From NCBI GenBank assembly GCA_910589415.1, contig OU342630.1, positions 50,624,012-50,688,011 on the forward strand: a stretch of DNA of 64,000 bases, written 5' to 3'. This document shows, piece after piece, positions 15,995 to 62,833 of this stretch. The stretch is from Malachius bipustulatus (Eukaryota > Arthropoda > Insecta > Coleoptera > Melyridae). The notes under the pieces are model-generated. The model did not search any database and was not told the DNA's origin. It saw only the letters and a program-made list of their open reading frames with translations. The position numbers and the translations under genes are program-made. Every line of letters starts with the position of its first letter. Position 1 is the stretch's first letter.

Positions 15995-17080
15995 TTACGT
16001 AATTATTTGTTCAAAGTGGCCCCCATTAACTTGGATACACAATTCAACACGTTTTTCAAACGATTGAGTCATGTTTCTACACATTTCCCGAGTAACACTT
16101 TGAAAACAGTTCCTAATACGAATTTTCATATCATCTCTTGTAGTCGGGGGTATTTTATATACCTGATCTTTTACAAATCCCCATATACAAAAATCCATTT
16201 TTGTTAGATCTGGTGATCTAGCCGGCCATGGTACTGGCGCTCCTCTTCCAATCCACTGCTGCCCATACCTTTCATTCAAGAAGTTAGTAATATGCCCTGT
16301 ATAATGCACGGGGGCTCCATCATGTAGAAACCAAAGACGTTCACGAACTTCATTTGGTATCTGAACCATTAATTGCGGTAAATTAAATCGTAAAAAATCC
16401 AAGTATAATTGTCCTGTTACTCTGCCCTCAAAAAAATGCGGTCCAATAACATAGTCTCCTACAACTCCTCCCCAAACGTTTAAGGACCATCTGTTTTGTG
16501 AATGGGTTCTTGCGAAATAGGGATTGCTGTTAGCATAATAATGAAAATTGTGCCTATTCACGTTTCCATTTTTATGAAATGTTGCTTCATCACAAAAGAA
16601 TACTAAATGTGCAAAATTTCTTTGTTGTCTCGTTTTTTCCTGTACCCATTCACAGAAATTTATTCTTCTCTGATAGTCTTCTTCATTTAGTTCCTGCAAC
16701 AACTGGATATGATAAGGATGCATTTTGTGTGCTTTCAGTATGTTCTGAATCGATGATCGTCTAATATCTAATTGATTGGAAATATTTCGTTGGCCAATGT
16801 GTGGATTTTCATTTACTGTTAAAAGAACGTCTAATTGATTTTCTTCAATTAAAACACGTTTTCTTCTTTCATTTTTATTATAGGCTACACTTCCCGTTCT
16901 TTGAAAACGCTCCATTACCTTTTCAAGCGCCCTTCTATTAGGTTGTCTTCGGTTTGGATATTTTTCTTTGTATATCCGCGTTGCTAACAAGCAGTTTTTG
17001 TCGCTAGCTCCTAGTACAAATACCATATCCACCATTTCGGCATTTGAAAAATTCATATTTAATACTTTTTGTACAAACAA
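15995..17080 (-). CDS. DUF4817/DDE-type mariner transposase (DD41D)
   Basis: This 361-residue frame is intact. It should bind the element's own TIRs and catalyse cut-and-paste transposition at TA sites. Residues about 10-130 form the DNA-binding part (FSNAEMVDMVFVLG, then a second helix-turn-helix with IGQRNISNQLDIRRSSI). The catalytic domain follows: first Asp in LVFFCDEATFH (about residue 165), second in WFLHDGAPVHY (about 255), third in PDLTKMDFCIWG (about 297). I count 41 residues between the second and third Asp, so it is DD41D. The length suits the family (about 340-370). Translation could start at M1 or at MNFSNAEM eight residues later. It is the only gene in the element and lies between the long TIRs. 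Confidence 0.9.
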   Translation of the reverse strand: MFVQKVLNMNFSNAEMVDMVFVLGASDKNCLLATRIYKEKYPNRRQPNRRALEKVMERFQRTGSVAYNKNERRKRVLIEENQLDVLLTVNENPHIGQRNISNQLDIRRSSIQNILKAHKMHPYHIQLLQELNEEDYQRRINFCEWVQEKTRQQRNFAHLVFFCDEATFHKNGNVNRHNFHYYANSNPYFARTHSQNRWSLNVWGGVVGDYVIGPHFFEGRVTGQLYLDFLRFNLPQLMVQIPNEVRERLWFLHDGAPVHYTGHITNFLNERYGQQWIGRGAPVPWPARSPDLTKMDFCIWGFVKDQVYKIPPTTRDDMKIRIRNCFQSVTREMCRNMTQSFEKRVELCIQVNGGHFEQIIT

Positions 17081-17111
17081 ACCACCAAATCACTTTAATT
17101 GTCATCTAATT

Positions 17112-19062: not shown

Positions 19063-19439
19063 AGTTGAACCTCAGAAATAGTCGTGTTCTACTTAAATTA
19101 TTTGAAATTTAGTAGACAAAAATATTGTTAAAATAATTTCATTAATAACCATTGGAATTCGATTTTAGCTGGATAGCCGGTCTTCATACCGATAACGCCA
19201 ATCTTATCGCTCGCTATAGGTGTACCTACCTTCTTAAAGTAGGTATTTATTTTTAAATAAAATTATTGAATTTTTATTATTGTATTAAAGATAATAGTTA
19301 TTTTGTTTATTAGTCTATTAAGCAATTGATTGAATAGATTGATCGAGCTATAGAGTCAAATTTGTATTTAAAGAACAAACTTATTTTTGTTAGATTTGTT
19401 CGTTCAAGAACAAAACTTTCTGTTTGCTTTTGATTTATA

Positions 19440-22400
19440 ATGGCTAATTTGCAAAAGTTAACGCAAAATAGAGCCACCAGGGCTTATCATATTGATAGAA
19501 TAAATGAAATGCTCGTGGTCGCTGAAACTGCGCTCAAGGATCAGGCAATGCATACAGAGTTCAAAATGCGATACGCTAGCTTAGAAACTACCTTTAAATC
19601 GGTTGAGGTTTTTAATGCAAAAATTATTAGTATGGTTAGCGTTTTAGAACAGAGGGATGAGGAACTTAATCAGGAAAAAATTGTTAGAATAAACGTTGAT
19701 AAAAATTATTTTAAAATTAAAACGATTTATCATGATCTTTTTTCGGCTCAGAATGTATTAAATCAATCGGTACGGCAGCCTGTCGCTAATAATGTCAAAC
19801 TTCCAAGAATTGCACTACCGTCCTTTAATGGTCAGCTGAAGGATTGGTTGAATTTTGTCGATTTATTCACCACCTTAATTGATAGTAATGAAGATTTATC
19901 AGGAATTGAAAAGTATCAGTATTTGATTAGCTGTCTTTCGGGAGAACCTTTAGATATTGTTAAAGGAATTGCCTTATCCAATGATAATTATGCCATAGCA
20001 TTTGACAACCTTAAAAAGAGGTACGACAATAAAAGACTGTTGGCAACGTCATTTTGGAATGAAATCGTTAATTCTCCAAGAATGGAGAAGGAGAGTCTAA
20101 GTGTTCTTCGTGATTTAATTAATAAATTCAAAGAAAACTTAGCCGCCCTGGATTCGCAAGGTTTTCCTGTTGATCAGTGGGACTTTCCTCTTTTCAATAT
20201 ATTATTAGGAAAAATTGATACGAAGACGCGTACCCGTTTTGAGTTAGAGTTTGGTAAAACTGAATTGCCCACTTATCCTGATTTGATAGAATTTCTGAGC
20301 AATCATTGCAAGGCTATGGGGACTGTGGAATTTGCCCAGAATTCTTCGGCTTCTCAGAAAGTATACTCAGCATCGATTTCTTCTAAGCAACATAATGTAA
20401 AGTCCTATCGTCGTTCGTCGTTGCATGTTAGTGGTGACGTTACCCATGTAAGAACCGTATGCTCGGATTGCAAAAGCTATCATCACATCAGCAAATGTCC
20501 TTCCTTCGTCGCCAAAGCACCTCATGCTAGATATGTATTTTCCAAAAAGCATCATTTGTGCTTAGGTTGCTTGAGTGACTCTCATAACTTGAAAGATTGT
20601 CGAGAGGCTTCAAGATGTCGAATCTGTCAAGGAAATCATCATGAATTGCTGCATTTCGAGAAGAGTGATAAAGAAAGGCCAAGGTCTGCGGTCGTCTCCT
20701 CCGAAAAAGCTGACAGGGTATTGGCCAGTGAATGTCTTGAGCTGGGGGGCGCAGCCGGTCAAGGTTCCGTCTTGAGTGCTGTGGCCAATTCTGACTCGTC
20801 ATATTCTACGGTGTTGCTGTCGACAGTTGAAGTGAATGTTTTGGATGCATTTGGAAGTCTTCAAAAGGTTAGAGCCTTGATCGATAATGGTAGTCAAGCT
20901 TCATTTATTACCGAGTCATGTTGTAAACGTTTAGGTTTCAGGTACTCGACAATGGCGCAGTCAGTTCATGGTATCGGAAATTCGTCGATGGTTCATCCGA
21001 AGGGCAGGTTATCATGCATTATTCGGCCTGTTCATTCACAAACTCCTCAACTGAATGTAGAATTTTTCGTTTTGTCTCGAATTTGTGCTGACATGCCAAG
21101 TCAGTCGTTTGTAAACAAGGGCTGGTCACATCTTTCGAATTTGCAGATGGCTGATCCTTATTTTAATTGTTCGAAGCCCATCGATATGCTACTTTCAGCT
21201 GAAGTATTTGCACAGATCCTGTGTAACGGTAGAATAGAGGGTGGGCCAAATGAGCCTATTGCGCTTAACACGAGTTTTGGTTGGCTCGTGAGCGGTCGCA
21301 TCCAACACCAATCATCAATATCTTCGAAAATTAATTCGTTTGTCACCTCCTTGCTGGTCACGTCCCTCACTGATCAATCACTAGAAGTCACTTTGAAAAA
21401 GTTTTGGGAACTTGAATCGGTTCCTTGTAAAGTCGTGTCGTCTCCGGATGACATTCAATGTGAGGAGCTCTATAAGCGGACGGTCACTAGAAATGACGAA
21501 GGTCGCTACATAGTATCGCTCCCGTTTCGCGAAGGAGAAAATCCTTCATTAGGGAATTCTCGGGATAGGGCTCTTCGTAGATTTTATTCACTTGAGAATC
21601 GTCTTTCGAAAAACGAGAGTCTTCGTAGTCTATACAATGATTTTATGCAGGACTATCTCAATTCGGGTCACATGCAACTTGCGTCTCTACTCAGGGACCC
21701 TTCATTGGGGTATTACATTCCACATCATTGTGTTATTAAGACGGACTCCCTGACTTCTAAACTTCGCGTTGTCTTTGACGCATCCTCAAAGACTTGTGAT
21801 GGGTTATCATTAAATGATACCCTGTTATGTGGGAAGAAACTCCAAGCAGATATCGCTGCACTTCTCCTTCGTTTTCGAACACATAAAGTGACCTTCACAG
21901 CTGATATTCGGCAGATGTACCGTCAAATTCTCATTTCTCCCCTTCAAAGAGATTATCAAAGAATCATTTGGAGATTCTCTCCAAAGGAACCGCTAAAAGA
22001 GTACGTCTTGAAAACGGTAACGTACGGTGTCTCGTCATCACCATTCTTAGCTCTTAGAACTCTTAGACAATTAGCACTTGATGAAGGCAATCGGTATCCT
22101 TTAGCTGCGAGAATAATTTTGGAGGATGAGATTTATGTGGATGACATACTGTCTGGGTGTAATTCCGTGGAAGAAGCAAAGCTGGTTATCCAGCAGCTCA
22201 TCGCCCTACTTCGTTGCGGCGGTTTTGAACTTCGCAAGTGGGCAAGCAATTGTCCACAACTTTTGAAAGATATTCCCGAAGAATTCAAACAAGTACCATT
22301 GGACTTTGATGAAGATTCCGTTATTAAAATTTTGGGACTTCGCTGGAATCCTTCAAGAGATACGTTTTCATACTCGGCGAACGTATTGTCAAAGTCATGT

Positions 22401-24698
22401 ACGAAACGAAGCATTCTGTCTGAATTAGCTCGCATTTTCGACCCGTTGGGATTTCTAACTCCATTGACGTTTTTTGCAAAATATTTGATGCAGCATTTGT
22501 GGGCCTTGAGAGTCGATTGGGACCAGGAACCACCGGATGATGTCGTCAATGTTTGGAAAAAGTATAAATCTGAACTCCCCTGTTTATCGTCGCTAGAAAT
22601 ACCTCGTTCGTTTTCGACCACTGTTGGTTCGATTTGTGAACTTCATGGATTTGCAGATGCCAGTGAGCGAGGTTACGCTGCTGTCGTTTATTTTCAAGTC
22701 AAGACGGGTGAGCTCTCCAAAGTCTTTTTGATTTCGGCTAAATCCAAAGTAGCACCCATGAAAAGGATCTCGTTACCGCGGCTAGAGTTGTGTGCGGCAG
22801 TATTATTATCTGATCTATTATCCTTCGTCAAGTCCACATACCATAATCTATCTTTCACTAAGATCTCAGCTTGGTCAGACTCTACGATCGCTCTCCAATG
22901 GATCAAATCCTCTCCACATCAATGGAAAACGTTTGTGTCTAACAGAGTCACTCACATTCAAGAAAGAGTTAGCCCCATAAATTGGCATCATGTCTCGGGT
23001 CGGGAGAATCCTGCGGATGTCGCTTCTCGAGGAGCTTTACCCGTTGAATTGTTGAACCATCCTTTATGGTGGGCGGGACCTCCATGGTTGTCGTCCCAGA
23101 ATTCTACACCGATTCCGCCGCAATTGTTACAGTCCTGTGCGGAAGCCTTGGTTGAGGAACGCAAATTTGTGTTACACACTGCATTAGACCCTCATCCTGT
23201 TTTATCATTGTTTGATAGGTATTCGAGCCTAGAAAAGATCCAAAGAATCGTCGCAATCTGTCTGAGATTTATTTCGTCGGTTGTCAGGCGCATCAATGCA
23301 AAAAATCTTGCTGTTGCAATCAAAAACAGTTTTTCCGCATTCGATTCTAATAGCAGCTCCCTTAAGCCCGTTGAACTTGAGACTAGTCTATTGGTTATTT
23401 GTCGTTTGGTCCAACATGACATATTCTCGGAGGAAATTTTGTGTTTGAAAAGGGGCAAGTTGCTCTCAAAATCGTTTAGGCAGCTCAGTCCTTTTCTAGA
23501 TGATCTAAGTATAATCCGGGTAGGCGGTAGACTAGTGCATGCGAAATTAACTTATGATCAGAAATTTCCCATATTGTTACCGCGTCAACATCGATTGACG
23601 TATCTTATAATCGATCATTTTCATAAGAAATACTCACACTGTGGACTAAGGACATTGCAGTTTCTTATCGCGCAACAGTTTTGGATTCTATCACCTAGAC
23701 GAGCCATTCGTCATGTTTTATCGAAATGTTATAGATGTTTTAGGGTTAATCCCGTTCCTTGTCAGCCGACTATGGGAAACTTGCCAGTTTCACGGGTTTC
23801 GCAAATAAAACCCTTCTCGTGTGTAGGATGCGATTTTGGTGGACCATTTTCGGTTACCCTTGGTAAGTCTCGCGGGTCAAGGTCTCAAAAGGCATACCTC
23901 TGCTTATTTGTTTGCTTCGCCACGAAAGCTGTTCACCTCGAACTCGCTTCGGACCTTTCTGCCGAATGTTTTCTCGCAGCTTTTCGACGTTTCATTTCGC
24001 GGCGAGGCAGATGTTCAATGGTGTACAGCGATTGTGGCACAAATTTCGTAGGTGCTTATAAATATTTAAGGGACCTGATGAAGGGTGCTGTGGAATCTGA
24101 AAAAATTGAGTGGCACTTCAATCCTCCGTCTGCGCCTCATTTCGGAGGACTCTGGGAAGGCGGTATAAAATCCGTTAAATCGCATCTCTCGAAGGTCGTC
24201 GGGGAACAAATTCTCACGTTCGAAGAGTTATACACAGTACTGGTCAGTATTGAATCAATTTTGAATTCACGCCCCCTGGTTGAAATGAGTTCGGATCCTC
24301 ATGACTTGTCGGTCTTGACACCAGGTCATTTTCTAACTTTGGAGCCGCTGACCGCAATTCCCGATCATGACCTCACTCATTTAAATATGTCTCGTTTGAA
24401 TCGTTGGCAGCTGCTCCAAAGGCTCCAGCAAGATTTTTGGAAGCGATGGCATTCGGAATACCTGCATTCGTTAATGCAACGTTCAAAATGGACGAAGCCT
24501 GGCAAAGGCCTTATTAAGGGAGATTTGGTCGTTATTAAGGACGAACAATCCCCACCTTTACGTTGGCGCTTAGGACGGGTAACCGATCTACAGGTGGGCC
24601 CAGATGGAGTACCTCGCGTCGCTAGCGTGAAGACTGCCACCGGAGTGCTGTTGCGTCCGTTGGTCAAATTATGCCCTTTACCGGGCACTGCCGAATAA
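19440..24698 (+). CDS. BEL/Pao Gag-Pol polyprotein, intact (1752 aa)
   Basis: One uninterrupted ORF encodes all BEL proteins. The N-terminal Gag part includes the DUF1759 region (LPRIALPSFNGQLKDW, about residue 121). Zinc knuckles follow at about 340-400 (VCSDCKSYHHISKC, CLGCLSDSHNLKDC). The aspartic protease has LIDNGSQASFI near 480. Reverse transcriptase shows FTADIRQMYRQI near 820 and catalytic EIYVDDIL near 897. A BEL-type RNase H region has GFADASERGYAA near 1070. The integrase zinc domain (H-H-C-C) spans about 1380-1440, the integrase core has YSDCGTNFVGAY near 1530 and a GGLWEGGIKSVK Glu motif, and a DUF5641-type C-terminal domain lies near 1670-1745. In-frame fusion of gag and pol is normal for BEL. 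A 398-nt leader separates the 5' LTR from the ATG. Confidence 0.95.
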   Translation: MANLQKLTQNRATRAYHIDRINEMLVVAETALKDQAMHTEFKMRYASLETTFKSVEVFNAKIISMVSVLEQRDEELNQEKIVRINVDKNYFKIKTIYHDLFSAQNVLNQSVRQPVANNVKLPRIALPSFNGQLKDWLNFVDLFTTLIDSNEDLSGIEKYQYLISCLSGEPLDIVKGIALSNDNYAIAFDNLKKRYDNKRLLATSFWNEIVNSPRMEKESLSVLRDLINKFKENLAALDSQGFPVDQWDFPLFNILLGKIDTKTRTRFELEFGKTELPTYPDLIEFLSNHCKAMGTVEFAQNSSASQKVYSASISSKQHNVKSYRRSSLHVSGDVTHVRTVCSDCKSYHHISKCPSFVAKAPHARYVFSKKHHLCLGCLSDSHNLKDCREASRCRICQGNHHELLHFEKSDKERPRSAVVSSEKADRVLASECLELGGAAGQGSVLSAVANSDSSYSTVLLSTVEVNVLDAFGSLQKVRALIDNGSQASFITESCCKRLGFRYSTMAQSVHGIGNSSMVHPKGRLSCIIRPVHSQTPQLNVEFFVLSRICADMPSQSFVNKGWSHLSNLQMADPYFNCSKPIDMLLSAEVFAQILCNGRIEGGPNEPIALNTSFGWLVSGRIQHQSSISSKINSFVTSLLVTSLTDQSLEVTLKKFWELESVPCKVVSSPDDIQCEELYKRTVTRNDEGRYIVSLPFREGENPSLGNSRDRALRRFYSLENRLSKNESLRSLYNDFMQDYLNSGHMQLASLLRDPSLGYYIPHHCVIKTDSLTSKLRVVFDASSKTCDGLSLNDTLLCGKKLQADIAALLLRFRTHKVTFTADIRQMYRQILISPLQRDYQRIIWRFSPKEPLKEYVLKTVTYGVSSSPFLALRTLRQLALDEGNRYPLAARIILEDEIYVDDILSGCNSVEEAKLVIQQLIALLRCGGFELRKWASNCPQLLKDIPEEFKQVPLDFDEDSVIKILGLRWNPSRDTFSYSANVLSKSCTKRSILSELARIFDPLGFLTPLTFFAKYLMQHLWALRVDWDQEPPDDVVNVWKKYKSELPCLSSLEIPRSFSTTVGSICELHGFADASERGYAAVVYFQVKTGELSKVFLISAKSKVAPMKRISLPRLELCAAVLLSDLLSFVKSTYHNLSFTKISAWSDSTIALQWIKSSPHQWKTFVSNRVTHIQERVSPINWHHVSGRENPADVASRGALPVELLNHPLWWAGPPWLSSQNSTPIPPQLLQSCAEALVEERKFVLHTALDPHPVLSLFDRYSSLEKIQRIVAICLRFISSVVRRINAKNLAVAIKNSFSAFDSNSSSLKPVELETSLLVICRLVQHDIFSEEILCLKRGKLLSKSFRQLSPFLDDLSIIRVGGRLVHAKLTYDQKFPILLPRQHRLTYLIIDHFHKKYSHCGLRTLQFLIAQQFWILSPRRAIRHVLSKCYRCFRVNPVPCQPTMGNLPVSRVSQIKPFSCVGCDFGGPFSVTLGKSRGSRSQKAYLCLFVCFATKAVHLELASDLSAECFLAAFRRFISRRGRCSMVYSDCGTNFVGAYKYLRDLMKGAVESEKIEWHFNPPSAPHFGGLWEGGIKSVKSHLSKVVGEQILTFEELYTVLVSIESILNSRPLVEMSSDPHDLSVLTPGHFLTLEPLTAIPDHDLTHLNMSRLNRWQLLQRLQQDFWKRWHSEYLHSLMQRSKWTKPGKGLIKGDLVVIKDEQSPPLRWRLGRVTDLQVGPDGVPRVASVKTATGVLLRPLVKLCPLPGTAE

Positions 24699-29899: not shown

Positions 29900-30596
29900 A
29901 ACGATTACTTCTTTGGATTAGAAACCAAATTTATCTTTATCTTATTTGGCTTTTATGTATCTAGGATTTTCATAAAATAAATCTCATAATTATTTGAACT
30001 TTACGATTTGTCTGCGATATCACTTGATATTTATATAAATTTCTCTTGTTGCTTACTGCATGTATTATTTATTGAAAGCTTTTGCATGATTTAGTTTTAA
30101 GCATTATTGTTCCCTAATATATGTGTACCTACCTAATTATCTTTGTGCAAAGTGCCGTGTCGCGAAAATACCTACTTTTTCTTACCGCTACACTGCCGCT
30201 AAAGGGTAACCCGTCAGGGAGCTTTACGGAGTGGTTGATTATACCGTCGCGATGTCTCGAGCAAGTTTTAGAGAAGCTTAATTCCGTACGGAGAGGATAC
30301 TCGATACGAGAGCTCTGTAGTTAAGCTGTCTTTGAAAACTGTATCCAAAAATCTTTCCCTGAAAATTACCTTACCATTTTCTCATTAAGTTAGGTTAGGT
30401 TTCCATTAATCTTTGACTCTCCAGTCAGCTGTTGGTATTAGTGCCGACGAGCGCTAAAGCTACGAGCAGTGTTGCGACGTATCCCTTGCATTCTTTACGT
30501 CAAACGTAGAAAACGAATTCTTTACGTGTAAAGATACACCATAGCGTCACATAGCTTTTTCGATCCCTACCTTACCGACTTTAGTAGATTTCAATC
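29900..30596 (+). other. Gypsy untranslated leader
   Basis: About 700 nt between the primer site and the gag ATG. Expected to hold packaging signals. No ORF with a recognisable domain. Confidence 0.6.
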
Positions 30597-32027
30597 ATGA
30601 ATCCCGTTCTAGCTTTATTAAGTGAAGAACTCGCTTACGAAATAGCGATTAGAAAACAAGTCCCATTTAATACACAGGAGAAAAGACGAATTCAGTTTCG
30701 TGCCCTGTTAAATAGGGAAGAAAATCCTCTCTCTATTTCTGAATCTGTCTACCCCTTTGACAAAGATTCTGCAGAGGTGAAAAAGACTCTTGCAGATTTG
30801 AAAATCAAAATACAGGACGCTCCCTTGTCTCTTAATGACCCTATCTGTCAAAGAATTCAATGTCGTCTGAATCATGTGATCTCTAGAATCAATAGATTCA
30901 AACTTGATCAAGATCCTGAAGCAAAAGCTTTAGCTGACGATTTATTTTCTGAGGCTTTAGAATTAGAAGGTCAATGGCTTCTGAAAAACGACCAGTCCCT
31001 AGACCAAACTGATAACTCACCCAATTCCCAGAGTGCATCAAGCTCTACTGTCTCCACTCATTCTAGACCTAGTGTTCCAGTTTATAAATGGAATATTAAA
31101 TTTTCTGGCTCTTCTAAGGATAATTTGATCCAATTTCTAGAAAAGGTCAAAGAACTTCAAAGGTCGAGAAATGTCTCAGACCGCGATCTTTTTGATTCGG
31201 CAATGGATCTTTTTGAAGACAAGGCCCTGATTTGGTTTCGCAGTGTTGCAAGCTCAATTATTTCTTGGGAAGATCTCAAGAATAAATTGAAAATTACTTT
31301 TCTCCCCCTCTCTTACGATGATGACCTATTAGAGGAAATCAAACAAAGAACTCATGGTGAATTTGAGTTAGTTGCTATCTATGTTGCCTCGATGCAAGGC
31401 TTATTTAAGAGATTGTCTACTCCTCCATCAGAAGTGGAGCAATTTAAAATAATCAAGAAAAATCTTCATCCCTACTTCCAAAACCATCTTGCCCTTGTTG
31501 AGGTAAACAACATTCAGGACATAATTTCAATTGGAAAGAAGTTAGAAGATAATAGGACTATAGTCCAACAATATCGTCCCCCTCCCTCTAAGAAGGTTCA
31601 AAGTCTCTTAAATTCAGACTTAGCATGTTCTGGAGAACCAGCTTCTTTCTCTTCTCGTAAAGCCAGAGGCACACCAACTAAAGGTGCACCTACACCTAGT
31701 AACTCCAAGATCCCAGTTACTAACCTTTCTGCAGTCACCTGTTGGAATTGTTCCAACAAAGGTCATACCTATGTAAGGTGTAATCTCCCTAGAAAAGTTT
31801 TTTGTTATGGCTGTGGCCATAAAAATGTCTACAAGTCTAAATGTCCCTCATGTTCGGCAGATTTCCTGAACTCTCTCAAAGTCACTTCTCGTTCAAAAAA
31901 CGACGAAGTTGCACAACAGGGTGCAGTGCGACAACAAGAGACAAGCCGCCCAAAGCAAGCCCTTGTAGAAAAGAGCTTGAAGTCAAAGGACGATCAGTCT
32001 CCTCCCTCTCCAATAGACCAGCACTAA
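30597..32027 (+). CDS. gag: Gypsy Gag (476 aa)
   Basis: Structural protein that should assemble the virus-like particle and bind the element RNA. The N-terminal half is helical and charged. A retrotransposon Gag (capsid-like) region spans about residues 160-330 (KWNIKFSGSS, then KALIWFRSVASSIISWEDLK, the W-F and W-x-x-L-K signature of the family). Cysteine knuckles follow near 380-420: CWNCSNKGHTYVRC is a standard CCHC, and a second C-x2-C...C-x2-C group follows (CYGCGHKNVYKSKCPSC). The reading frame ends with TAA at 32025-32027 and overlaps pol by at least 187 nt. Translation start is the first ATG after the leader. Confidence 0.92.
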   Translation: MNPVLALLSEELAYEIAIRKQVPFNTQEKRRIQFRALLNREENPLSISESVYPFDKDSAEVKKTLADLKIKIQDAPLSLNDPICQRIQCRLNHVISRINRFKLDQDPEAKALADDLFSEALELEGQWLLKNDQSLDQTDNSPNSQSASSSTVSTHSRPSVPVYKWNIKFSGSSKDNLIQFLEKVKELQRSRNVSDRDLFDSAMDLFEDKALIWFRSVASSIISWEDLKNKLKITFLPLSYDDDLLEEIKQRTHGEFELVAIYVASMQGLFKRLSTPPSEVEQFKIIKKNLHPYFQNHLALVEVNNIQDIISIGKKLEDNRTIVQQYRPPPSKKVQSLLNSDLACSGEPASFSSRKARGTPTKGAPTPSNSKIPVTNLSAVTCWNCSNKGHTYVRCNLPRKVFCYGCGHKNVYKSKCPSCSADFLNSLKVTSRSKNDEVAQQGAVRQQETSRPKQALVEKSLKSKDDQSPPSPIDQH

Positions 32028-35000
32028 TATCTTCCAGTTATCTTGTTGATTTCACTATCCAAAAGGAACAGTGGAAATCATGGTTGCAAAAAGTTGCAAA
32101 CTTTTTCGAATCTTTTCGAATACCTCCTAAAAAGGACATACCTAAACCAATAAGTGCTGACTCTTTAATACCTGTTATAGCTCCAATCTTATTATCTAAC
32201 CCTGTTGACAATAGACCATTTATAGCTGTCAAAATGTGTGACGTACCTTATACAGCCCTCTTTGACACCGGCGCCAATATCTCTGTTTGTGATTTGGAAA
32301 CCATGCAGGAAGTTCTGGGTGAACTACCCATCCCTTCTAAAAATTCGGATTTGTTGTGTTCCCTGAAAAATGCTGACGGCTCCCCTCTATCTGTTATCGA
32401 CATAATTGAACTTGACCTGACCATAGATGACGTCACAAAGAAAGTTCAATTCCATGTGGTATCTTCCATTTCACCACAAATTATCTTGGGAATAGACGTA
32501 GCTCGTATTTTCAACATGATGATTAATTTCGTAAATGAATCTTTCGAAGTTCATCCCGGTGATCCTTCGTCTTCATTATCTCCTATCTTACCTAATGAAC
32601 TTACGGTTTGCGCTATCAATAAGATTCAGGATATCTCTTGTTTACCTCCTACCGACCTGTCTAGACTTGAATCGACGATAGACAAATTCAAAAGTTTGGC
32701 CCGTGTTGATATACTCCCTGAAACCAATGTGCTATGCCATTCCATAGAAACAAAAGACGCTAAGCCTTTTAGACAGAGACAATATCCCTTATCTCCAACC
32801 CTTCAACAATATCTGAATGAAGAGGTAGATAAATTACTTAAGTTAGACATTGTCGAAAAAAGTAATTCTCCTTGGGTGTCCCCTGTCCTTTTGGTCCGCA
32901 AGAAAGACAAAACATACCGTATGTGTTTTGATGGTCGAAAGCTAAACGAGATCACCACACATGACTCATATCCCCTGCCTAGAATCGATACTATCTTGAG
33001 CAAGCTCAAAGACGCTAATTATCTTACCTCCATCGATTTAAAGCAGGCTTTCTTTCAAGTTCCTTTGGACGAAGAATCCCGCCCAAAGACCGCTTTTGTA
33101 GTTCCCGGGAGAGGTTTATTCCAATTCCGACGAATGCCTTTCGGACTGAGAAACAGTGCTCAAACCCAGCAACGACTTATGGACACAATTTTAGGTCCAG
33201 CTTTGGAGCCATTTGTTTTCGTTTATCTTGACGATATAATTATCGCCACGAATAGTTTCGAGAAACATCTAGAAATTTTAAGGGAAGTATATGAGCGTTT
33301 AAAAGACGCTAATCTTACTGTCAACTTCGACAAATGTCACTTCTGTCGAGATTCTCTCTCCTTTTTGGGTTTTATTATCGATAGAAACGGATTGCGAGTT
33401 AGTGAAGAGAAAGTTAAATCGATTATTGAGTCCCCTGTTCCTCATAACACCACTGGAGTAAGACACGTCCTAGGTATCTTACAATATTATAGGCGTTTCA
33501 TAAAGGATTTTTCTACAATCAGTGCTCCTATCTCAGCTCTGCTGCATAACCGAAAAAAGGGACAGTCAATAACTTGGAACTCAGAAGCTGATCAAGCTTT
33601 TAAACTTCTCAAGGAACGACTAACTACAGCTCCCGTTCTAGCTAGCCCAGATTTCTCGAAGCCCTTTTGCATACAGACGGATGCAAGTGATTTCGGGTTA
33701 GGTGCGGTGCTCTTTCAACTGGAGGGAGATTTTGAACACCCCATTGCTTTTGCTAGTCGAATGCTCTCGAAAGCCGAGAAGAAATACACCGTTACCGAAA
33801 GAGAATGTTTAGGGGTCCTCTTTGGTATAGAATATTTTCGCCCTTATGTCGAAGGTGCAAATTTTACAGTTTACACCGATCATGCCTCTCTTCTCTGGCT
33901 TCGCACGTTAAAAGATCCTATGGGTCGTGTAGCTAGATGGTGTTTACGCCTCAGCCAGTTTGATTTCGACATTAAACATCGAAAAGGCACTTGCAATGTC
34001 CCGGCAGACTATCTTTCCCGCTCTATTTCTTCTATCTCTCTCCAAAACTTTGTACCTGATGATTGGTATAAAGACATGGTCTCCAAAGTTACCAAGTTTC
34101 CTGAGAAATACCCTGACTTTACCATCAAAGACAATATTCTTTATAAACATGTTAAGCCTCGAGTGGAAGTCGTGTCTAACCTATCTGATTGGAAGATTGT
34201 TGTCCCTACTCCTAATCGGGAGGAAATAATTGCTCAATTTCATGACCCTCCAACTTCTGCGCATTTTGGAGTAAGTAAAACTTTGGCAAGAATTTCTGAA
34301 GTTTATTATTGGCCCAAAATGATTATCTCAGTCAAAAAGTACGTGAGAAACTGCCAGGTTTGTGGTGCACACAAAGCCCCAAACACTGCTCGTGTAGGAC
34401 TTATGGGTAATTATAAGAAAATCAATTTTCCCTTCCAATTTCTCTCTATTGACTTCATGGGACCTTTCCCTCGATCCAAGGCTAGAAACACCCAACTTTT
34501 AGTCGTCACTGATTGGTTTTCGAAATTCGTTTTGGTTAAACCAATGCCTAATGCTACAGCAGCTGCCGTTACAAAATTTCTTGAGAACCAAGTGTTCTTA
34601 ATTTTCGGTGTGCCCCAGATTCTGCTTTGCGACAACGCTCAAATTTTTAAAAGCAGTCTATTCACTAATTTGCTGAAAAACTACGAAGTTAATTTGTGGT
34701 ATAGCGCCAGGCATTTATCTCAGGTGAATCCGACCGAGAGAACGAATCGTACCATCCTTACAGCCATCTCATCTTACATCCGTGACAATCATAAAGATTG
34801 GGATAAAAATGTTTATAAAGTTGCACAAGCAATTAACTTATCGGTGAGCGAAGTTACTAAACACGCTCCAGCTTTCCTACTTTTCGCTAGAAATGTCCCT
34901 GTAGACGGAACCTTTTACGGTCCAGTCTCAGATAATTATCTAGAATTACCTGATGATCTGTCTTATGTTCATCGAGAACAAGACATATCTAAATTACCTC

Positions 35001-35311
35001 CTATCTTCAGCGATATACGTGATAGACTTAAGAAAGCTTACGAAGTAAGTAAGAAACATTACGACTTACGCAAGCGCCCCGATGTTTTCACCGAGGGTGA
35101 CCTCGTCTGGAAACATACCTACCCACTTTCGAATGCCGCAAAGAATTTTGCTGCTAAATTGGCCCCAAAATTCGTACTATGCCGGATATCTAAAGTAGTG
35201 TCTAAATTAGTGTACGAATTACAGGACCAAGAAGGCAATCCCCTAGGTCGCTGGCATTCTAAAGATTTGAAGGCTTATCGAGGCGAAGACCCGCCGAAAA
35301 GCGACGAATAG
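31841..35311 (+). CDS. pol: Gypsy Pol: protease, reverse transcriptase, RNase H, integrase
   Basis: The frame is open from before 31841. The ATG there is probably not used, because entry is by -1 frameshift near 31895. Aspartic protease: ALFDTGANISVCD, about residue 140 of this frame. Reverse transcriptase: TYRMCFDGRKLNEIT and catalytic VYLDDIII at about 460. RNase H: IQTDASDFGLGAVLF near 610 and YTDHASLLWL. Integrase zinc domain: H-H-C-C with HFGVSKTLARI...CQVCGAHK near 800-845. Integrase core: Asp in LSIDFMGPF, Asp in LLCDNAQIF, Glu in NPTERTNR. A GPY-like C-terminal part follows (GDLVWKHTYPLS). No stop or frameshift is seen, so all enzymes look intact. Confidence 0.95.
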   Translation: MSLMFGRFPELSQSHFSFKKRRSCTTGCSATTRDKPPKASPCRKELEVKGRSVSSLSNRPALISSSYLVDFTIQKEQWKSWLQKVANFFESFRIPPKKDIPKPISADSLIPVIAPILLSNPVDNRPFIAVKMCDVPYTALFDTGANISVCDLETMQEVLGELPIPSKNSDLLCSLKNADGSPLSVIDIIELDLTIDDVTKKVQFHVVSSISPQIILGIDVARIFNMMINFVNESFEVHPGDPSSSLSPILPNELTVCAINKIQDISCLPPTDLSRLESTIDKFKSLARVDILPETNVLCHSIETKDAKPFRQRQYPLSPTLQQYLNEEVDKLLKLDIVEKSNSPWVSPVLLVRKKDKTYRMCFDGRKLNEITTHDSYPLPRIDTILSKLKDANYLTSIDLKQAFFQVPLDEESRPKTAFVVPGRGLFQFRRMPFGLRNSAQTQQRLMDTILGPALEPFVFVYLDDIIIATNSFEKHLEILREVYERLKDANLTVNFDKCHFCRDSLSFLGFIIDRNGLRVSEEKVKSIIESPVPHNTTGVRHVLGILQYYRRFIKDFSTISAPISALLHNRKKGQSITWNSEADQAFKLLKERLTTAPVLASPDFSKPFCIQTDASDFGLGAVLFQLEGDFEHPIAFASRMLSKAEKKYTVTERECLGVLFGIEYFRPYVEGANFTVYTDHASLLWLRTLKDPMGRVARWCLRLSQFDFDIKHRKGTCNVPADYLSRSISSISLQNFVPDDWYKDMVSKVTKFPEKYPDFTIKDNILYKHVKPRVEVVSNLSDWKIVVPTPNREEIIAQFHDPPTSAHFGVSKTLARISEVYYWPKMIISVKKYVRNCQVCGAHKAPNTARVGLMGNYKKINFPFQFLSIDFMGPFPRSKARNTQLLVVTDWFSKFVLVKPMPNATAAAVTKFLENQVFLIFGVPQILLCDNAQIFKSSLFTNLLKNYEVNLWYSARHLSQVNPTERTNRTILTAISSYIRDNHKDWDKNVYKVAQAINLSVSEVTKHAPAFLLFARNVPVDGTFYGPVSDNYLELPDDLSYVHREQDISKLPPIFSDIRDRLKKAYEVSKKHYDLRKRPDVFTEGDLVWKHTYPLSNAAKNFAAKLAPKFVLCRISKVVSKLVYELQDQEGNPLGRWHSKDLKAYRGEDPPKSDE
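31895..31901 (+). promoter_or_regulatory. -1 ribosomal frameshift site A_AAA_AAC
   Basis: In the gag frame the codons are TCA AAA AAC GAC, so the heptamer A AAA AAC is in the X XXY YYZ phase used by -1 frameshifting. The pol frame is -1 relative to gag and is open across this point. Expected product is a Gag-Pol fusion made at low frequency. Confidence 0.8.
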
Positions 35312-36445: not shown

Positions 36446-36575
36446 CAGTTTTTCCGTGCGTATAGTGAGCTTTTAAGCAATCAGTGTGTTTACGTTGCTT
36501 GAAAAATTTCACGTTGTTATCTGTTACCTGGCCTTAAAGGCAGAGTAAATTTCCCCTTTTTCTTACCCGTGCAAT

Positions 36576-37775
36576 ATGGAGTCGCGTAGGCGACGACGTA
36601 GCCAAATTTTCGCTGGCTTTAAAGACGAAAAGATTACTTTCAATTTCAGACTTTGGGAGGAGATGAAACTCCTACCCGAATTCGGAGTAAACCCGGATAT
36701 TAGGGCTTGGCAAGTAAAAGCAAATAAAGAATGTTTTCTTATTGAAAAGGACAGATATTTTAAATTTCTATCTCTTCACGCTGTTCTGGAACACCGCCAC
36801 CCTGACATAGATGTTTTAGACCATTTCTGTGAAGTCGCACAAGAAAGGTGTGACGCAGATAATATGGACGTGACCGCATCTTTGTTCAGATATAATGCCA
36901 GGCACCTTTCTACCGAGGCAGTTATCTTTGAAAATCCTATGGCCGAGGATGAGAAACAACGGTTTCGAATTCTAGGTTCATATAAAAAGCCCAGCGAAGA
37001 TTGGTTACAAGTGCACAGAAACACTTGGACAAAGTTCCAAAAACAAGGAAACCCTGAGCGAGTTAGCATTAACCGTCCAATTAAATCTATAAAGTCGAGA
37101 TTTGAACCAGAGACTGAGTTGGCGATTACTTTAGGACAGTTGTTACCTAGTCGTGTTCGTTGTCGTGAGAGGGCCATGTTGGCGATAGCCTACCCTACAA
37201 CTATGATTATTAGTCCTTGTAAGACACCCATACCTTTATATAGTAGAAGAATCTACTACCCTCGCGACATTACGCCTGATATTCATCATACGGGACGTCG
37301 ACATCCGTTAAAACATCTAGTTATTCCACTCTTTTTAGACTCGAAATTTCCCTTACCGGGAATATTCAAAAATAGGTGTGTTTGCCAACTTCTCTCATAT
37401 CGAATAATCAAAAATAATCTTTTCGTGACCGCTCTTATATTTGACCATTTAATTAAAAATTCTTCTTGTTCCCCTAGGAGCAAAGACATCTTTCCTCCAT
37501 GGCGAGAAAGTTTCCCTAAATTTTCCCCGTTGATTGACATAAGCGCAATCCAGATAATCACCCTTGCAGACACTCTTGTGCCTACACCTGTGGGACAAGA
37601 GCACTGGATTGTGTTGGGACAACTTTTAGTACGCCTGGTGAACGATGGTCAAATGTGGAGAAGGTTCGAATCTCACTTCGGTGTCCTGAATAGGGAACCT
37701 GAAGACGACTTTAATAACTTTTTATGGTTTCCAAGAAACCGTCCTAACCGTTTCCATTCCTCGAGGTATCTCTAG
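36576..37775 (+). CDS. Gypsy ORF3, protein of unknown function (399 aa)
   Basis: I do not recognise this protein. It occupies the env position (after pol, before the 3' LTR, same strand) but does not look like an envelope: there is no N-terminal signal peptide and no clear membrane segment. It opens with an arginine-rich stretch (MESRRRRRSQ), which could be a nuclear localisation or RNA-binding patch. An acidic/aromatic N-terminal region follows, with GFKDEKITFNFRLWEEMKL. The middle part is basic (residues about 170-260), and the C-terminal part is rich in Trp, Phe and Arg. The frame is uninterrupted over 399 codons in an AT-rich context, which supports real coding. A candidate splice acceptor (AAAGGCAG|AG, after 36543) lies 32 nt before the ATG and could join to a donor in the 5' LTR. 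The frame ends TAG. Confidence 0.75.
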   Translation: MESRRRRRSQIFAGFKDEKITFNFRLWEEMKLLPEFGVNPDIRAWQVKANKECFLIEKDRYFKFLSLHAVLEHRHPDIDVLDHFCEVAQERCDADNMDVTASLFRYNARHLSTEAVIFENPMAEDEKQRFRILGSYKKPSEDWLQVHRNTWTKFQKQGNPERVSINRPIKSIKSRFEPETELAITLGQLLPSRVRCRERAMLAIAYPTTMIISPCKTPIPLYSRRIYYPRDITPDIHHTGRRHPLKHLVIPLFLDSKFPLPGIFKNRCVCQLLSYRIIKNNLFVTALIFDHLIKNSSCSPRSKDIFPPWRESFPKFSPLIDISAIQIITLADTLVPTPVGQEHWIVLGQLLVRLVNDGQMWRRFESHFGVLNREPEDDFNNFLWFPRNRPNRFHSSRYL

Positions 37776-59680: not shown

Positions 59681-60003
59681 CAATTCAGTCAGTCATATCG
59701 ACGGGATTCAACGTTCGTCGATAAAGTTTTTTTATCAGCGCTCGAACGGTCGGAACTGCGAGGCGAGGCCGGCAGATTGGATAGAGGAGAATAAGGCGGC
59801 GGTTACATTGGATGCGAATTCGTACGAAAAACCAATCGTACGAATTCGTACGAATACTTACGAAATCATCAGAAAGAAACAAACGCGTACATGTTTATGC
59901 ACATGGTTACATTACTTGCATATATTTCTTACAATTTCGTACAAACTCGTACGATTTCCTCAGGCGATCAAAATAATTTGTTTTTTCTGCGACTATTCGT
60001 AAG

Positions 60004-61733
60004 ATGGATGCTGAAAAATTAATATTACTGGTTCAAGAAAGGCAATCTTTATGGGACCAAAAAAGTAAACAATACAGCAACCGAGACTTGAATAAAAAAT
60101 TATGGAAGGAGATAGGGGAGAAGATGAATGTACGAGGTAAGTTTTTAATTTATGTATTTAATAATATTATGTAATAATGTAACCAAAGAATTACAAAATA
60201 TATAGGATAAGGTCTGTTTATCAATTACAAATTAAAATATTGTACAAATTTGTTGCGAATTTGGTAAGCTATGTCAGTAGCTCTGTTGAAACACCGCGGT
60301 CCATTTCTTTGTTGTTGATTTTGCTCGAGGTTTTGAATAATTTGCAAGTCAGCCGGACTACCCTCCAAGTTAATAATTATATTATGTAATAAACAAATAC
60401 ATTTTACAATAACATCCACTTTGTCAGGATCAATTTCAATTTCAGATTTTAAAATTCTCCATTTTGAGGTTATGATGCCAAAAGCACATTCAACAAGACG
60501 TCTTGCTCCGGAAAGTCGATAGTTGAAAACTTCTTGTTCTGGAGTCAGATTTTGTCCTGGAAATGGCCTCATCAAATATTTTTTCAGCGGATACGCTGCG
60601 TCTGCTACAAAAACGTGTGGCACGGTAATATCTGTATTTGGTATAGAGATGAATTTGTGAAAATACCACCATCGCTTTGCTTTCCATAGCTTCCAACTTC
60701 AACACTAATGAATTTGTAATTTGCGTCTACTAGACCTTGTAGCACTATGGAAAAATATTTCTTATAATTGAAATACAGATCCAGAATTTGGAGGGCATTT
60801 AATTCTAATGTGTTTGCCATCAATGGCTCCGACACAGTTAGAAAATTTCCATTTCTTGTAAAATTGATCTTCAATAGATGAAAACATTTTTTGTGTTGGA
60901 AATGGCATATGTTGTTCATATAAGGACGACCATATAGCTTCACAGGTTTCATAAACAATTTTTCTGATTGTCGTGTGAGACATTCGAAATGAGAAAGCTA
61001 ATGATCGAAAAGATATGCCGGTAGCAAGGTACCTGCAAAAATAATTGATAATTATCTTCGAAATAAAGGATTTACCAAATATTTAATAATACGTAATATA
61101 TAAATATTAAATAGTATTTTGTTACAGACGACATTGTGCGTCAGAAATGGAGAGGATTGCGAGATACTTTTAGGAAAGAACTCGTTAAACTGCAGCAAAA
61201 TAGAAGCGGAGATAGTGCAGATGAGGCTGATGAAATATCAAAATGGAAGTTTTTTGACAATATGCTGTTTATTAAAGATTTTTTTGGCTCGGAAAACAAG
61301 CGGAAATATTTCAAGACTTCAAAAAAAATCTAAACGTAGTGAGACTGACCAAATGAATACATCATCAGAATTAGTGAACAGTGATAATGAGCAATCACAA
61401 ACTGAAACAGAAAACACTTTGATAACAGAAATTGAACCTGTACTTGCTACACCACCCCTAAATGAAAAACGACCTCCGATTGCCACAAATCTAGAATCTA
61501 CCAATACTCGAAAAAGAAAGATAACTGGGAGGGACGCTACAATTAAACAATTACTAGCGATAGAGCAACGAAAATTGGACCACCTCAAACATACCTCTCA
61601 ACAACACGAAGATGATGATACCTATTTTGTTTTAAGTCTTGTTCCATATATGAAACAACTTCCAACCCATAGAAAATTATATGTTCGAACAAAGTTTCAG
61701 GAATTACTTATGAATGAGCATGAACTAATATGA
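60004..61733 (+). pseudogene. MADF-BESS partner protein of the Harbinger element (two exons)
   Basis: In Harbinger elements a Myb/MADF-type DNA-binding protein helps transposase reach the TIRs and the nucleus. Exon 1 is 60004-60136: MDAEKLILLVQERQSLWDQ opens a MADF domain, ending at G|GTAAGT. The intron is 60137-61127 (ends TTACAG). Exon 2 starts at 61128; the split codon G/AC gives Asp, and the MADF domain continues DIVRQKWRGLRDTFRKEL. A linker follows, then a BESS-like motif (FVLSLVPYMKQLPTHRKLYV) near 61625-61680. The frame breaks at an A8 run (about 61323-61330), where one base fewer would restore it. A Ser/Thr-rich frame at 61730-61960 may be the true C-terminus after another shift. The intron holds transposase exon 2 on the opposite strand. 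Confidence 0.85.
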
Positions 61734-62480
61734 CTCGATCCCACGATACTACACAAGAAGTAATTTCACGTCAATCTCGTCAATATACCACAGTACCAAC
61801 GCCTTCACCTACATATAGTTCTACTTTAACAGATTTTTCACAGTCACCTTCAGTTCAATCAGTGAATGATTCTACCTTCAGTTCATTAAGCTATGATCGT
61901 GATCCTGGCAGTGGTACAACACAATCATATTTCTCGAACTTTCAATCGGATTTTCCATAAGTTATGTACCTACTACATTTTATGAAATAATAATAATTGT
62001 TACTGATGGACTGTTATAGAAAATATGTTAAGACTGTTAAAGACTGTAAGAAAAGACTGTTAAAAAATATACTCGTATTACTTGATATGATAATTTTTTA
62101 CTTAATGCCTACCTTAACGTTACAATTAATTTTTCTTCAGGTGTAATGCATTCTCGAAAATTCGGGTGCTTGTGAAGTTGAGTTTCAACAGATTTTAGTA
62201 TGCAATCGAATGTAGTTGGTGTCATTTTTGTACATTAAAAAAAATTTTTATCATTTAACTTGAGCTCATTAAAAGATCTCACAAATTCGCCGTCTGTACT
62301 CCTTGACAAAAAAAAGTCATCAACCCAAACTCTAAGGTTCTCCAATAATAGATACTTTAATAATAACGATGTTTCAAAGCAGTAAAACTTCTCAATTTCA
62401 TTCATTGTTATTAACCACAATCTGAAAACTCTGATATACTGCGGTTTTTCGTCAGCACTCACATCATCTAATGTAACCAA
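60225..62480 (-). pseudogene. PIF/Harbinger DDE transposase (two exons, damaged)
   Basis: Minus strand. Exon 1 is 62480-62113: RVWVDDFFLSRSTDGEF, then MTPTTFDCILKSVETQL, ending TTAAG|GTAGGC. The intron is 62112-61033 (ends TTTTGCAG). Exon 2 starts at 61032, completing Arg, and continues YLATGISFRSLAFSFRMSHT. Catalytic residues are all visible: GAIDGKHIRIKCP (first Asp, about 60830), VFVADAAYPL (second Asp, about 60608) and ARRLVECAFGI (Glu, about 60505). The exon ends with a stop at 60225. Damage: a TAA at 62237-62235 inside exon 1, a frameshift near 60780 after PPNSGS, and another with a small apparent deletion near 60640. The copy is therefore not expected to make transposase. The intron holds exon 2 of the MADF-BESS gene. 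Confidence 0.88.
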
Positions 62481-62833
62481 TCTATCTTACGTATTCGTAC
62501 GACTTAATTTCTTACGAATTCGTAAGAATAAATTTTCGTACGAATTCGGATCCAATGTAACCGCCGCCTAAGTCGAGAAAAGAGGCGTTCGATTGCAATT
62601 TTTCAATAGTCCAGTTTTACGATAACTTCCGGATTGTGTGTGATTTAACCGGGATAATTGTTGGAAAATTATTGTGTTGAAGTCGTTTATTTGATGGTTG
62701 GATGTCATCGGCGACTAAAACATCACCGCTAGAAGTGGGATTCTTTTCGGCGTCTCCAAGAGACTACTATTTTCTATTTACTGCCTATTACCATCATTAT
62801 TCGACTGGGTGCCCCTAAACTGTCTTACTTAGG

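What the first reader, a model, noticed from the sequence alone, without database searches (positions are those of the whole stretch)
60004..62480. Two transposon genes with mutually nested, interlocked exons on opposite strands
Seen: the exon order along the DNA is MADF exon 1 (+), transposase exon 2 (-), MADF exon 2 (+), transposase exon 1 (-). Exon 2 of each gene lies wholly inside the single intron of the other. Both introns have GT-AG ends, and both junctions restore conserved protein motifs in phase (NVR-DDIVRQKW and LIVTLR-YLATG). Known: Harbinger elements carry a transposase and a Myb/MADF-like protein, usually as adjacent genes. Inference: the spliced mRNAs would share no complementary exon although the pre-mRNAs overlap. 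That would limit sense-antisense pairing after splicing and would link expression of the two genes to splicing.
Basis: partly seen in the sequence, partly recalled or inferred. Interest (0 to 1): 0.78.

Follow-up and report, generated by a model that had tools for sequence, protein, structure and literature searches.

The report
Jumping gene with two interlocked genes
In this insect-like genome a jumping gene carries its two genes threaded through each other on opposite DNA strands, so that half of each gene sits inside the spliced-out part of the other, and the same arrangement recurs in many distantly related families there, one of which has near-identical copies and so has probably moved recently.

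Summary
Window 59795-62568 is a 2.8-kb PIF/Harbinger transposon with terminal inverted repeats and TAA target duplication. Two two-exon genes lie on opposite strands, MADF-BESS (+) and DDE transposase (-); exon 2 of each lies inside the single intron of the other. The window copy is decayed; four relatives in the same genome (544 Mb) keep the order.

It is not one odd copy. Of 26 transposase families sampled in this genome (80% clusters), 16 show the interlocked order, 12 with all four exons; 8 have ordinary convergent genes; 2 are unassigned. The 16 share 37-70% identity in transposase exon 2. One interlocked family has six full-length copies at ~100% identity with perfect 64-bp repeats; the one copy that I spliced gives two intact proteins. 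Intron sites recur: transposase phase 2 at LR|Y, MADF phase 1 inside the MADF domain. Between two interlocked families all four exons show far more silent than replacement change.

I infer inward transcription from both ends, each pre-mRNA discarding the other gene's antisense exon. There is no RNA evidence, and the interlocked order is shown in one genome only. That mature mRNAs share no complementary sequence is plausible at the transposase end, open at the MADF end. My literature listings showed no such transposon.

The parts
59792..59794 (.). Target site duplication TAA, left
   Evidence: Sequence read directly; same 3-mer at 62569-62571
59795..59854 (+). Left terminal inverted repeat
   Evidence: Inverted repeat I1, 66-nt arms 59789-59854 and 62509-62574, 86% complementary; GGCGGCGGTTACATTGGAT found only at the two ends of the element in the window, expected 0.00 by shuffles
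60004..60136 (+). MADF gene exon 1 (first half of the MADF domain)
   Evidence: Pfam PF10545 positions 1-37 of 84, E 4e-9; donor G|GTAAGT
60137..61127 (+). MADF intron, holding transposase exon 2 on the other strand
   Evidence: GT...AG, phase 1, restores NVR-DDIVRQKW (and spliced copy L009); same place and phase in other families, read by eye
60225..61032 (-). Transposase exon 2 with DDE_Tnp_4 domain (frame-shifted, 49-bp gap in this copy)
   Evidence: PF13359 E 7.9e-21 and 4.6e-8 in two frames; copy L010 has an open 270-aa frame; gap seen in alignment A1
61033..61127 (.). 95-bp spacer with the two 3' splice sites back to back on opposite strands
   Evidence: spacing between the exon-2 profile hits 64-290 bp in 10 of 13 loci measured, 422 in L042, 672 in L048, 1047 in L046 (approximate where a hit is partial)
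61128..61960 (+). MADF gene exon 2: second half of the MADF domain, linker, BESS motif (frame-shifted in this copy)
   Evidence: PF10545 positions 42-84 E 1.8e-7; BESS E 1.2e-11 at about 61611-61715; open over 281 aa in copy L009
61033..62112 (-). Transposase intron, holding MADF exon 2 on the other strand
   Evidence: GT...AG, phase 2, restores LIVTLR-YLATG
62113..62405 (-). Transposase exon 1 (in-frame stop in this copy)
   Evidence: Open in copy L009 from MNEIEKF to LIVTLR; profile TPex1 E 1.7e-33 in L009
62509..62568 (-). Right terminal inverted repeat
62569..62571 (.). Target site duplication TAA, right

Best explanation
The element belongs to a lineage of insect PIF/Harbinger transposons whose two genes are interlocked. 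Each gene starts near one terminal inverted repeat and is transcribed inward. Its exon 1 lies outside, and its exon 2 lies beyond the exon 2 of the other gene. Each pre-mRNA therefore contains the antisense of the partner's exon 2 within its own intron (about 1 kb in the window). Splicing removes it and joins the two halves of the MADF domain, and the N-terminal part to the catalytic part of the transposase. The two proteins then serve transposition, the MADF protein probably as the DNA-binding partner, as in other two-gene Harbingers (recalled). I think the order arose once or twice from convergent genes with introns at these sites, by exchange of the two second exons (for example a tandem duplication of the central block followed by complementary losses). 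It then stayed because neither intron can be lost cleanly without damage to the other gene. Shown on sequence: exon order, splice signals, phases, conservation over many families, near-identical full-length copies of one family, more silent than replacement change in all four exons between two families. Inferred: transcription, splicing, protein cooperation, the route and direction of origin.
For: Same-family copies keep the order, 4 of 4 near-complete ones fetched (L009-L012). Sixteen of the 26 transposase clusters of this genome at 80% identity show it, 12 with all four exons. Transposase intron ends at the homologous site: GT-AG in 15 and GC-AG in 1 of 16 interlocked loci in which both ends could be placed, L022B excluded. 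L043 is intact (64-bp perfect repeats, TAA duplication, 405-aa transposase, 308-aa MADF protein with full MADF and BESS), and six full-length copies of 3140-3143 bp at ~100% identity lie on five contigs. L043 against L053: silent sites near saturation (75% to over 100% by the count), replacement sites 20-27% differing, in all four exons. The convergent families are scored by the same profiles, so the profiles do not impose the order. L026 is convergent and has a 62-nt intron at the same transposase site and phase. Of other insects' and unnamed assemblies' transposase relatives, 43 of 46 frames that run at least three residues upstream of exon 2 without an exon 1 hit have R directly before it (24 R in 627 other upstream residues), as an AG acceptor in phase 2 would translate; 13 of 120 have exon 1 joined exactly at this junction.
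Against: No RNA data. The interlocked order itself is seen in one genome only: two scans of viral contigs gave no relative, and the one contaminant contig found among prokaryote genomes (L049) has a transposase without the intron and only a BESS-profile hit at E 0.049. A single origin is neither shown nor rejected (two changes on the tree; 3% of 200 bootstrap trees have one; AU p 0.116). Copy pairs within a family show no clear purifying selection (L034/L036 transposase exon 2: 2.5 silent, 12.5 replacement changes; L047/L054 ratio 0.73), as expected of decaying copies. The other between-family pair, L048 against L022 (which mixes the two elements of L022), is less clear: ratio 0.69 for MADF exon 2, 0.29 from there through BESS. 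L022B had only a weak MADF exon 2 hit (E 0.024, absent) and is not counted. MADF exon 2 hits are weak in L045, L046 and L048 (E 7e-3, 2e-3, 4e-3; L048 has BESS at 2e-14).
Confidence: 0.86

Rival explanations
1. The arrangement is kept because it regulates: convergent transcription and antisense introns make double-stranded nuclear RNA or polymerase collisions that dampen the element, so that only efficiently spliced transcripts give protein.
For: In the interlocked loci exon 2 of each gene is antisense to the other's intron. The order persists over 16 families with 37-70% identity in transposase exon 2.
Against: No expression or small-RNA data. Convergent families (for example those of L057/L058 and L059) have many copies with open transposase frames in the same genome, so the lock is not needed for success.
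Confidence: 0.25
2. The two second exons are complete genes run from a bidirectional promoter in the 95-bp spacer, and the first exons are relics.
For: Head-to-head second exons with a short spacer.
Against: The MADF domain is split between exons. First exons are found with matching phases in 12 families and between L043 and L053 they change mostly at silent sites. The spacer holds a 3' splice site on each strand. Thirteen of 120 listed transposase relatives join exon 1 and exon 2 exactly at this junction (most are gene models, not known RNA).
Confidence: 0.04
3. A one-off: one transposon inserted into another, or a chance pattern of a decayed copy.
For: The window copy itself is decayed.
Against: The end motif lies only at the outer ends; the same order is found in 16 families and the whole 3.1-kb L043 element in six near-identical copies.
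Confidence: 0.01

Closest known systems
PIF/Harbinger DNA transposons of insects with transposase and MADF genes (PMC9710019; passages and section 6 seen)
   Same: Same two proteins; the paper describes domesticated transposase-MADF pairs next to each other, not always in the same direction, and a cockroach domesticated transposase (BPLG2) with two exons and an intron of about 900-1500 bp in most species.
   Different: What I saw describes neighbouring genes (97 and 179 bp apart), not genes inside each other's introns; the words opposite, orientation, overlap and nested have no occurrence in its main text. Its figures were not seen.
Mutually nested host genes, Dync2h1 (btv) and CG5674 in Drosophila (PMC10556659; two passages seen)
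   Same: Oppositely transcribed genes described as strongly mutually nested, all CG5674 exons within btv introns.
   Different: A host gene pair; here a compact mobile element carries the lock in about 3 kb, in many families.
Convergent Harbinger families of the same genome (L025, L026, L038, L055, L056, L058, L059, L060)
   Same: Homologous transposase and MADF; L026 has an intron at the same transposase site and phase.
   Different: Exons of each gene lie together, not interlocked; MADF hits are weak in L038 (exon 2, E 6e-3) and L060 (exon 1, E 0.04).
Giardia introns thought to be retained through sense-antisense overlap (PMC6545626; abstract and outline seen)
   Same: An intron kept because another gene lies across it.
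   Different: Sense-antisense pairs in a cellular genome, not reciprocal exons in a transposon.

Membership tests
PIF/Harbinger DNA transposon | DDE_Tnp_4/HARBI1-type transposase | tested here: met
   PF13359 E 7.9e-21 in the window piece, E 1.3e-31 in spliced L043
PIF/Harbinger DNA transposon | Terminal inverted repeats with 3-bp TAA/TTA target duplication | tested here: met
   Window. Of 16 interlocked loci tested, eight have both (L009, L010, L043, L044, L047, L048, L051, L054); L041 has 22-bp repeats but flanks AAA; none found for L036, L039, L042, L045, L050, L052, L053
PIF/Harbinger DNA transposon | Second gene with a Myb/SANT-like DNA-binding domain | tested here: met
   MADF PF10545 E 1.3e-19 and BESS E 3.6e-11 in spliced L009; 5.6e-17 and 6.3e-5 in spliced L043
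PIF/Harbinger DNA transposon | Transposition activity | not testable with these tools
   Six ~100% identical full-length copies of the L043 family suggest recent movement
PIF/Harbinger DNA transposon | Catalytic DDE residues | not tested
   Only the Pfam domain match was scored, not the residues one by one
Mutually nested gene pair | Each gene has at least one exon inside an intron of the other, opposite strands | tested here: met
   On sequence:
Mutually nested gene pair | Both genes transcribed and spliced as predicted | not testable with these tools
   No RNA reads were available

The most novel reading that the evidence does not exclude
Reciprocal interlocking of the two genes is an ancient, insect-wide design of one Harbinger lineage, created by an exchange of second exons between convergent genes. 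It is kept because it forces both genes to depend on splicing and on each other's integrity, so that central deletions cannot leave an element with one working gene and the introns cannot be lost.
Probability: 0.4. Interest if true: 0.8.

Novelty: new variant of a known kind. Interest (0 to 1): 0.66.

Why it matters
The one precedent for mutual nesting that my searches showed is a host gene pair. Here the arrangement recurs in a compact mobile element, over families whose transposases share as little as 37% identity in exon 2, and in a family with near-identical copies. Convergent families in the same genome serve as natural controls. That makes questions about why overlapping genes persist, whether introns are kept by what lies across them, and whether antisense transcription tames a transposon directly testable. 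It also bears on annotation: gene finders may split such elements into orphan second exons, as 54 of 120 database frames that begin at exon 2 without an exon 1 hit suggest.

Tried and rejected
Chance or nested insertion: rejected by recurrence. Head-to-head stand-alone second exons: judged unlikely as above. Other species: viral contigs with one protein and with alignment A2 gave none; genome contigs gave one contaminant contig without the intron. Shared contig lengths of transposase and MADF hits (P0001 and P0121, both 3487 bp) hint at one contig, but the same kind of coincidence at 1210 bp (P0091, P0133) cannot be one contig holding both frames side by side, so I give this little weight. Within-family dN/dS: uninformative. 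Poly(A) signals: inconclusive for MADF. Single origin: undecided. Rfam and tRNA scans of the window: nothing. Papers: eight searches. Searches found no paper; of the others 3 of 3, 20 of 67, 20 of 56, 20 of 161, 20 of 21 and 5 of 5 papers were listed, and no listed title or abstract start describes such a transposon. Subscription papers and Repbase entries could not be read, so absence from print is not shown.

Rows dropped before counts: 53 loci were scored (L009-L061), 45 have a transposase exon 2 hit. L013-L020 have none and were left out; L049 (not this genome) and L022B (weak) are left out of the 16 interlocked families, although L022B was counted as interlocked; L040 is unassigned. Loci were not chosen at random: 20 regions from the more distant of the 46 matches, then 8 and 12 regions from the 147 matches, mostly high-scoring.

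Full report
What is in the window. Position 59795-62568 is a 2774-bp element with inverted repeats (I1; end motif only at the two ends) between two TAA triplets. It carries a MADF-BESS gene on the + strand and a Harbinger transposase on the - strand. Their exons alternate: MADF exon 1, transposase exon 2, MADF exon 2, transposase exon 1. The window copy is broken in both genes.

Other copies. The genome of the window (544 Mb, 52 contigs, unnamed) holds four further long copies at 94-95% identity and shorter pieces. In L009 the MADF gene reads as an intact 321-aa protein, and the transposase reads through the junction to a stop near its C-terminus. L009-L012, 4 of 4, have the same exon order. 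L013-L020 are shortened or decayed relatives; in 8 of 8 the profiles find neither transposase exon 2 nor the MADF half in MADF exon 2.

Diverged families. I took loci around transposase matches and scored them with profiles for the two halves of each gene and for BESS. Of 53 loci scored, 45 have transposase exon 2; one of these holds two elements, so there are 46 rows. At 80% identity these are 27 clusters; 26 belong to this genome. Sixteen are interlocked: 12 with all four exons (the families of L009, L036, L039, L041, L043, L045, L046, L047, L048, L051, L052, L053; the MADF exon 2 hit is weak in L045, L046 and L048) and four with three exons (L022A with L021 and L023, L024, L042, L050). Eight are convergent, with the exons of each gene together (L025, L026, L038, L055, L056, L058, L059, L060; the MADF exon 1 hit of L060 is E 0.04). 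L040 and L022B are unassigned. itself printed 17 interlocked clusters; I removed L022B because its MADF exon 2 hit was weak. Identity in transposase exon 2 among the 16 interlocked representatives is 37-70%, median 46%, over 120 pairs. The profiles find both orders, so the order is not built into the search.

Splice sites. In 16 interlocked loci where both transposase intron ends could be placed, 15 have GT-AG and one (L039) GC-AG, all at the same site and phase, with introns of 434-2115 nt (L022B excluded; in the other interlocked loci one end was missing or altered). The MADF junction contexts, read by eye, fit a phase 1 intron at one place in the domain; L034 and L035 have lost the acceptor AG, and L052 shows GC at the donor. 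The two second exons lie 64-290 bp apart in 10 of 13 loci measured, further in L042, L046 and L048. Among convergent families, L026 has a 62-nt intron at the same transposase site and phase, whereas L025, L055, L056, L059 and L060 are contiguous there.

A young family. L043 and L044 have perfect 64-bp repeats and TAA duplications. Spliced L043 gives a 405-aa transposase with a full DDE_Tnp_4 domain and a 308-aa protein with a full MADF domain and BESS. Six full-length copies of 3140-3143 bp at ~100% identity lie on five contigs, each with the 64-bp repeats at 100%. The interlocked form has therefore probably multiplied recently. Which proteins moved it is not shown.

Selection. Between the related interlocked families L043 and L053 nearly all silent sites have changed (TPex1 35.3 of 42.0, TPex2 107.3 of 142.5, MADFex2 17.2 of 19.0, BESS 15.8 of 20.0, MADFex1 15.3 of 14.3 sites by my Nei-Gojobori count), against 20-27% of replacement sites. 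All four exons thus behave as coding sequence in this pair. L048 against L022 is less clear (0.69 for the MADF part, 0.29 through BESS) and mixes the two elements of L022. Pairs of copies within a family do not show it (L034/L036, L047/L054, L009/L010), as dead copies would not.

Phylogeny. On a maximum-likelihood tree of exon 2, interlocked and convergent loci need two changes of state; 12 of the 13 convergent loci group together (98/91) with three unassigned loci, and L026 stands apart in an unresolved region. One split is not rejected (AU p 0.116), nor supported (3% of 200 bootstrap trees). The 19 database proteins that I put on the tree (of 120 listed), from beetles, flies and mosquitoes, an aphid, a wasp, a butterfly, a dragonfly and unnamed assemblies, all fall in a well-supported group of 31 rows (100/99) that holds 10 interlocked and no convergent loci. 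They were chosen among close hits, so this is a prediction about their gene order, not a finding.

Other insects. Of 120 listed transposase relatives (of 3399), 14 contain exon 1, 13 of them joined to exon 2 exactly at this junction (P0025 skips the first residues of exon 2); 54 begin at the start of exon 2 without an exon 1 hit, and 52 begin inside exon 2. Of 46 frames with at least three residues upstream of exon 2, 43 have R just before it, and 40 of those have mostly F/Y/C/L/I/S/V/H before that R, as a pyrimidine tract with AG read in phase 2 would give. This speaks for the same intron in many insects; it says nothing about the place of MADF. MADF relatives were few (13 and 17, 18 in all): six carry both halves joined, one only exon 1, eleven lack exon 1. 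P0138 of the firefly Abscondita terminalis shares 91% over the 13% of the query that is exon 1 and leaves it near the same point for unrelated sequence.

How it works and why it lasts. The start codons lie about 160-330 bp inside the element ends (window and L043), so I infer inward promoters near both ends and overlapping convergent transcription across the middle. Splicing would strip the antisense exon from each transcript. AATAAA or ATTAAA lies in the gap after the transposase stop in 9 of 9 loci examined and after the MADF stop in 4 of 9. Convergent genes with an intron at the same transposase site exist (L026), so an exchange of second exons by duplication and complementary loss is a short path; neither the path nor the direction of change is demonstrated. 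Once interlocked, precise loss of either intron would delete part of the other gene, which alone could freeze the design. A regulatory use through antisense RNA remains open.

Known work. PMC9710019 (passages and section 6) treats insect PIF transposase-MADF pairs as neighbouring genes. PMC10556659 (two passages) gives a host precedent for mutual nesting. PMC6545626 (abstract, outline) proposes that sense-antisense overlap preserves introns. Eight searches of the open-access library showed no transposon of this kind in their capped listings; this is not proof of absence. That Harbinger transposition needs the second DNA-binding protein is recalled, from no call.

Noticed in passing
window 19434-24698 (+): Long open frame (1754 aa) of a BEL/Pao-type retrotransposon (Peptidase_A17, integrase zinc finger).
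   Followed up: no
window 30588-35311 (+): Gag and pol frames of a Ty3/gypsy-like retroelement, overlapping in two frames.
   Followed up: no
window 15995-17089 (-): Open transposase frame with DUF4817 and DDE_3, Tc1/mariner-like.
   Followed up: no
window 36549-37775 (+): Open frame of 408 aa without a Pfam match at E 0.001.
   Followed up: no
L013-L020: Shortened or decayed relatives of the window's family; in 8 of 8 no profile hit for transposase exon 2 or for the MADF half of MADF exon 2.
   Followed up: partly
G000, matches to L043 ends: Many short pieces sharing the two ends of the young L043 family, MITE-like.
   Followed up: no
L049 (JAHZIU010000197.1): A contig filed under a betaproteobacterial MAG carries an animal-type Harbinger transposase; probably contamination.
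   Followed up: partly
P0138: Firefly gene model whose start is 91% identical to MADF exon 1 and then continues into unrelated sequence; a possible host fusion or a prediction artefact.
   Followed up: no
L039, L045: The two opposing 3' splice sites are only 64 and about 75 bp apart, so that their branch and pyrimidine regions probably overlap on opposite strands.
   Followed up: no
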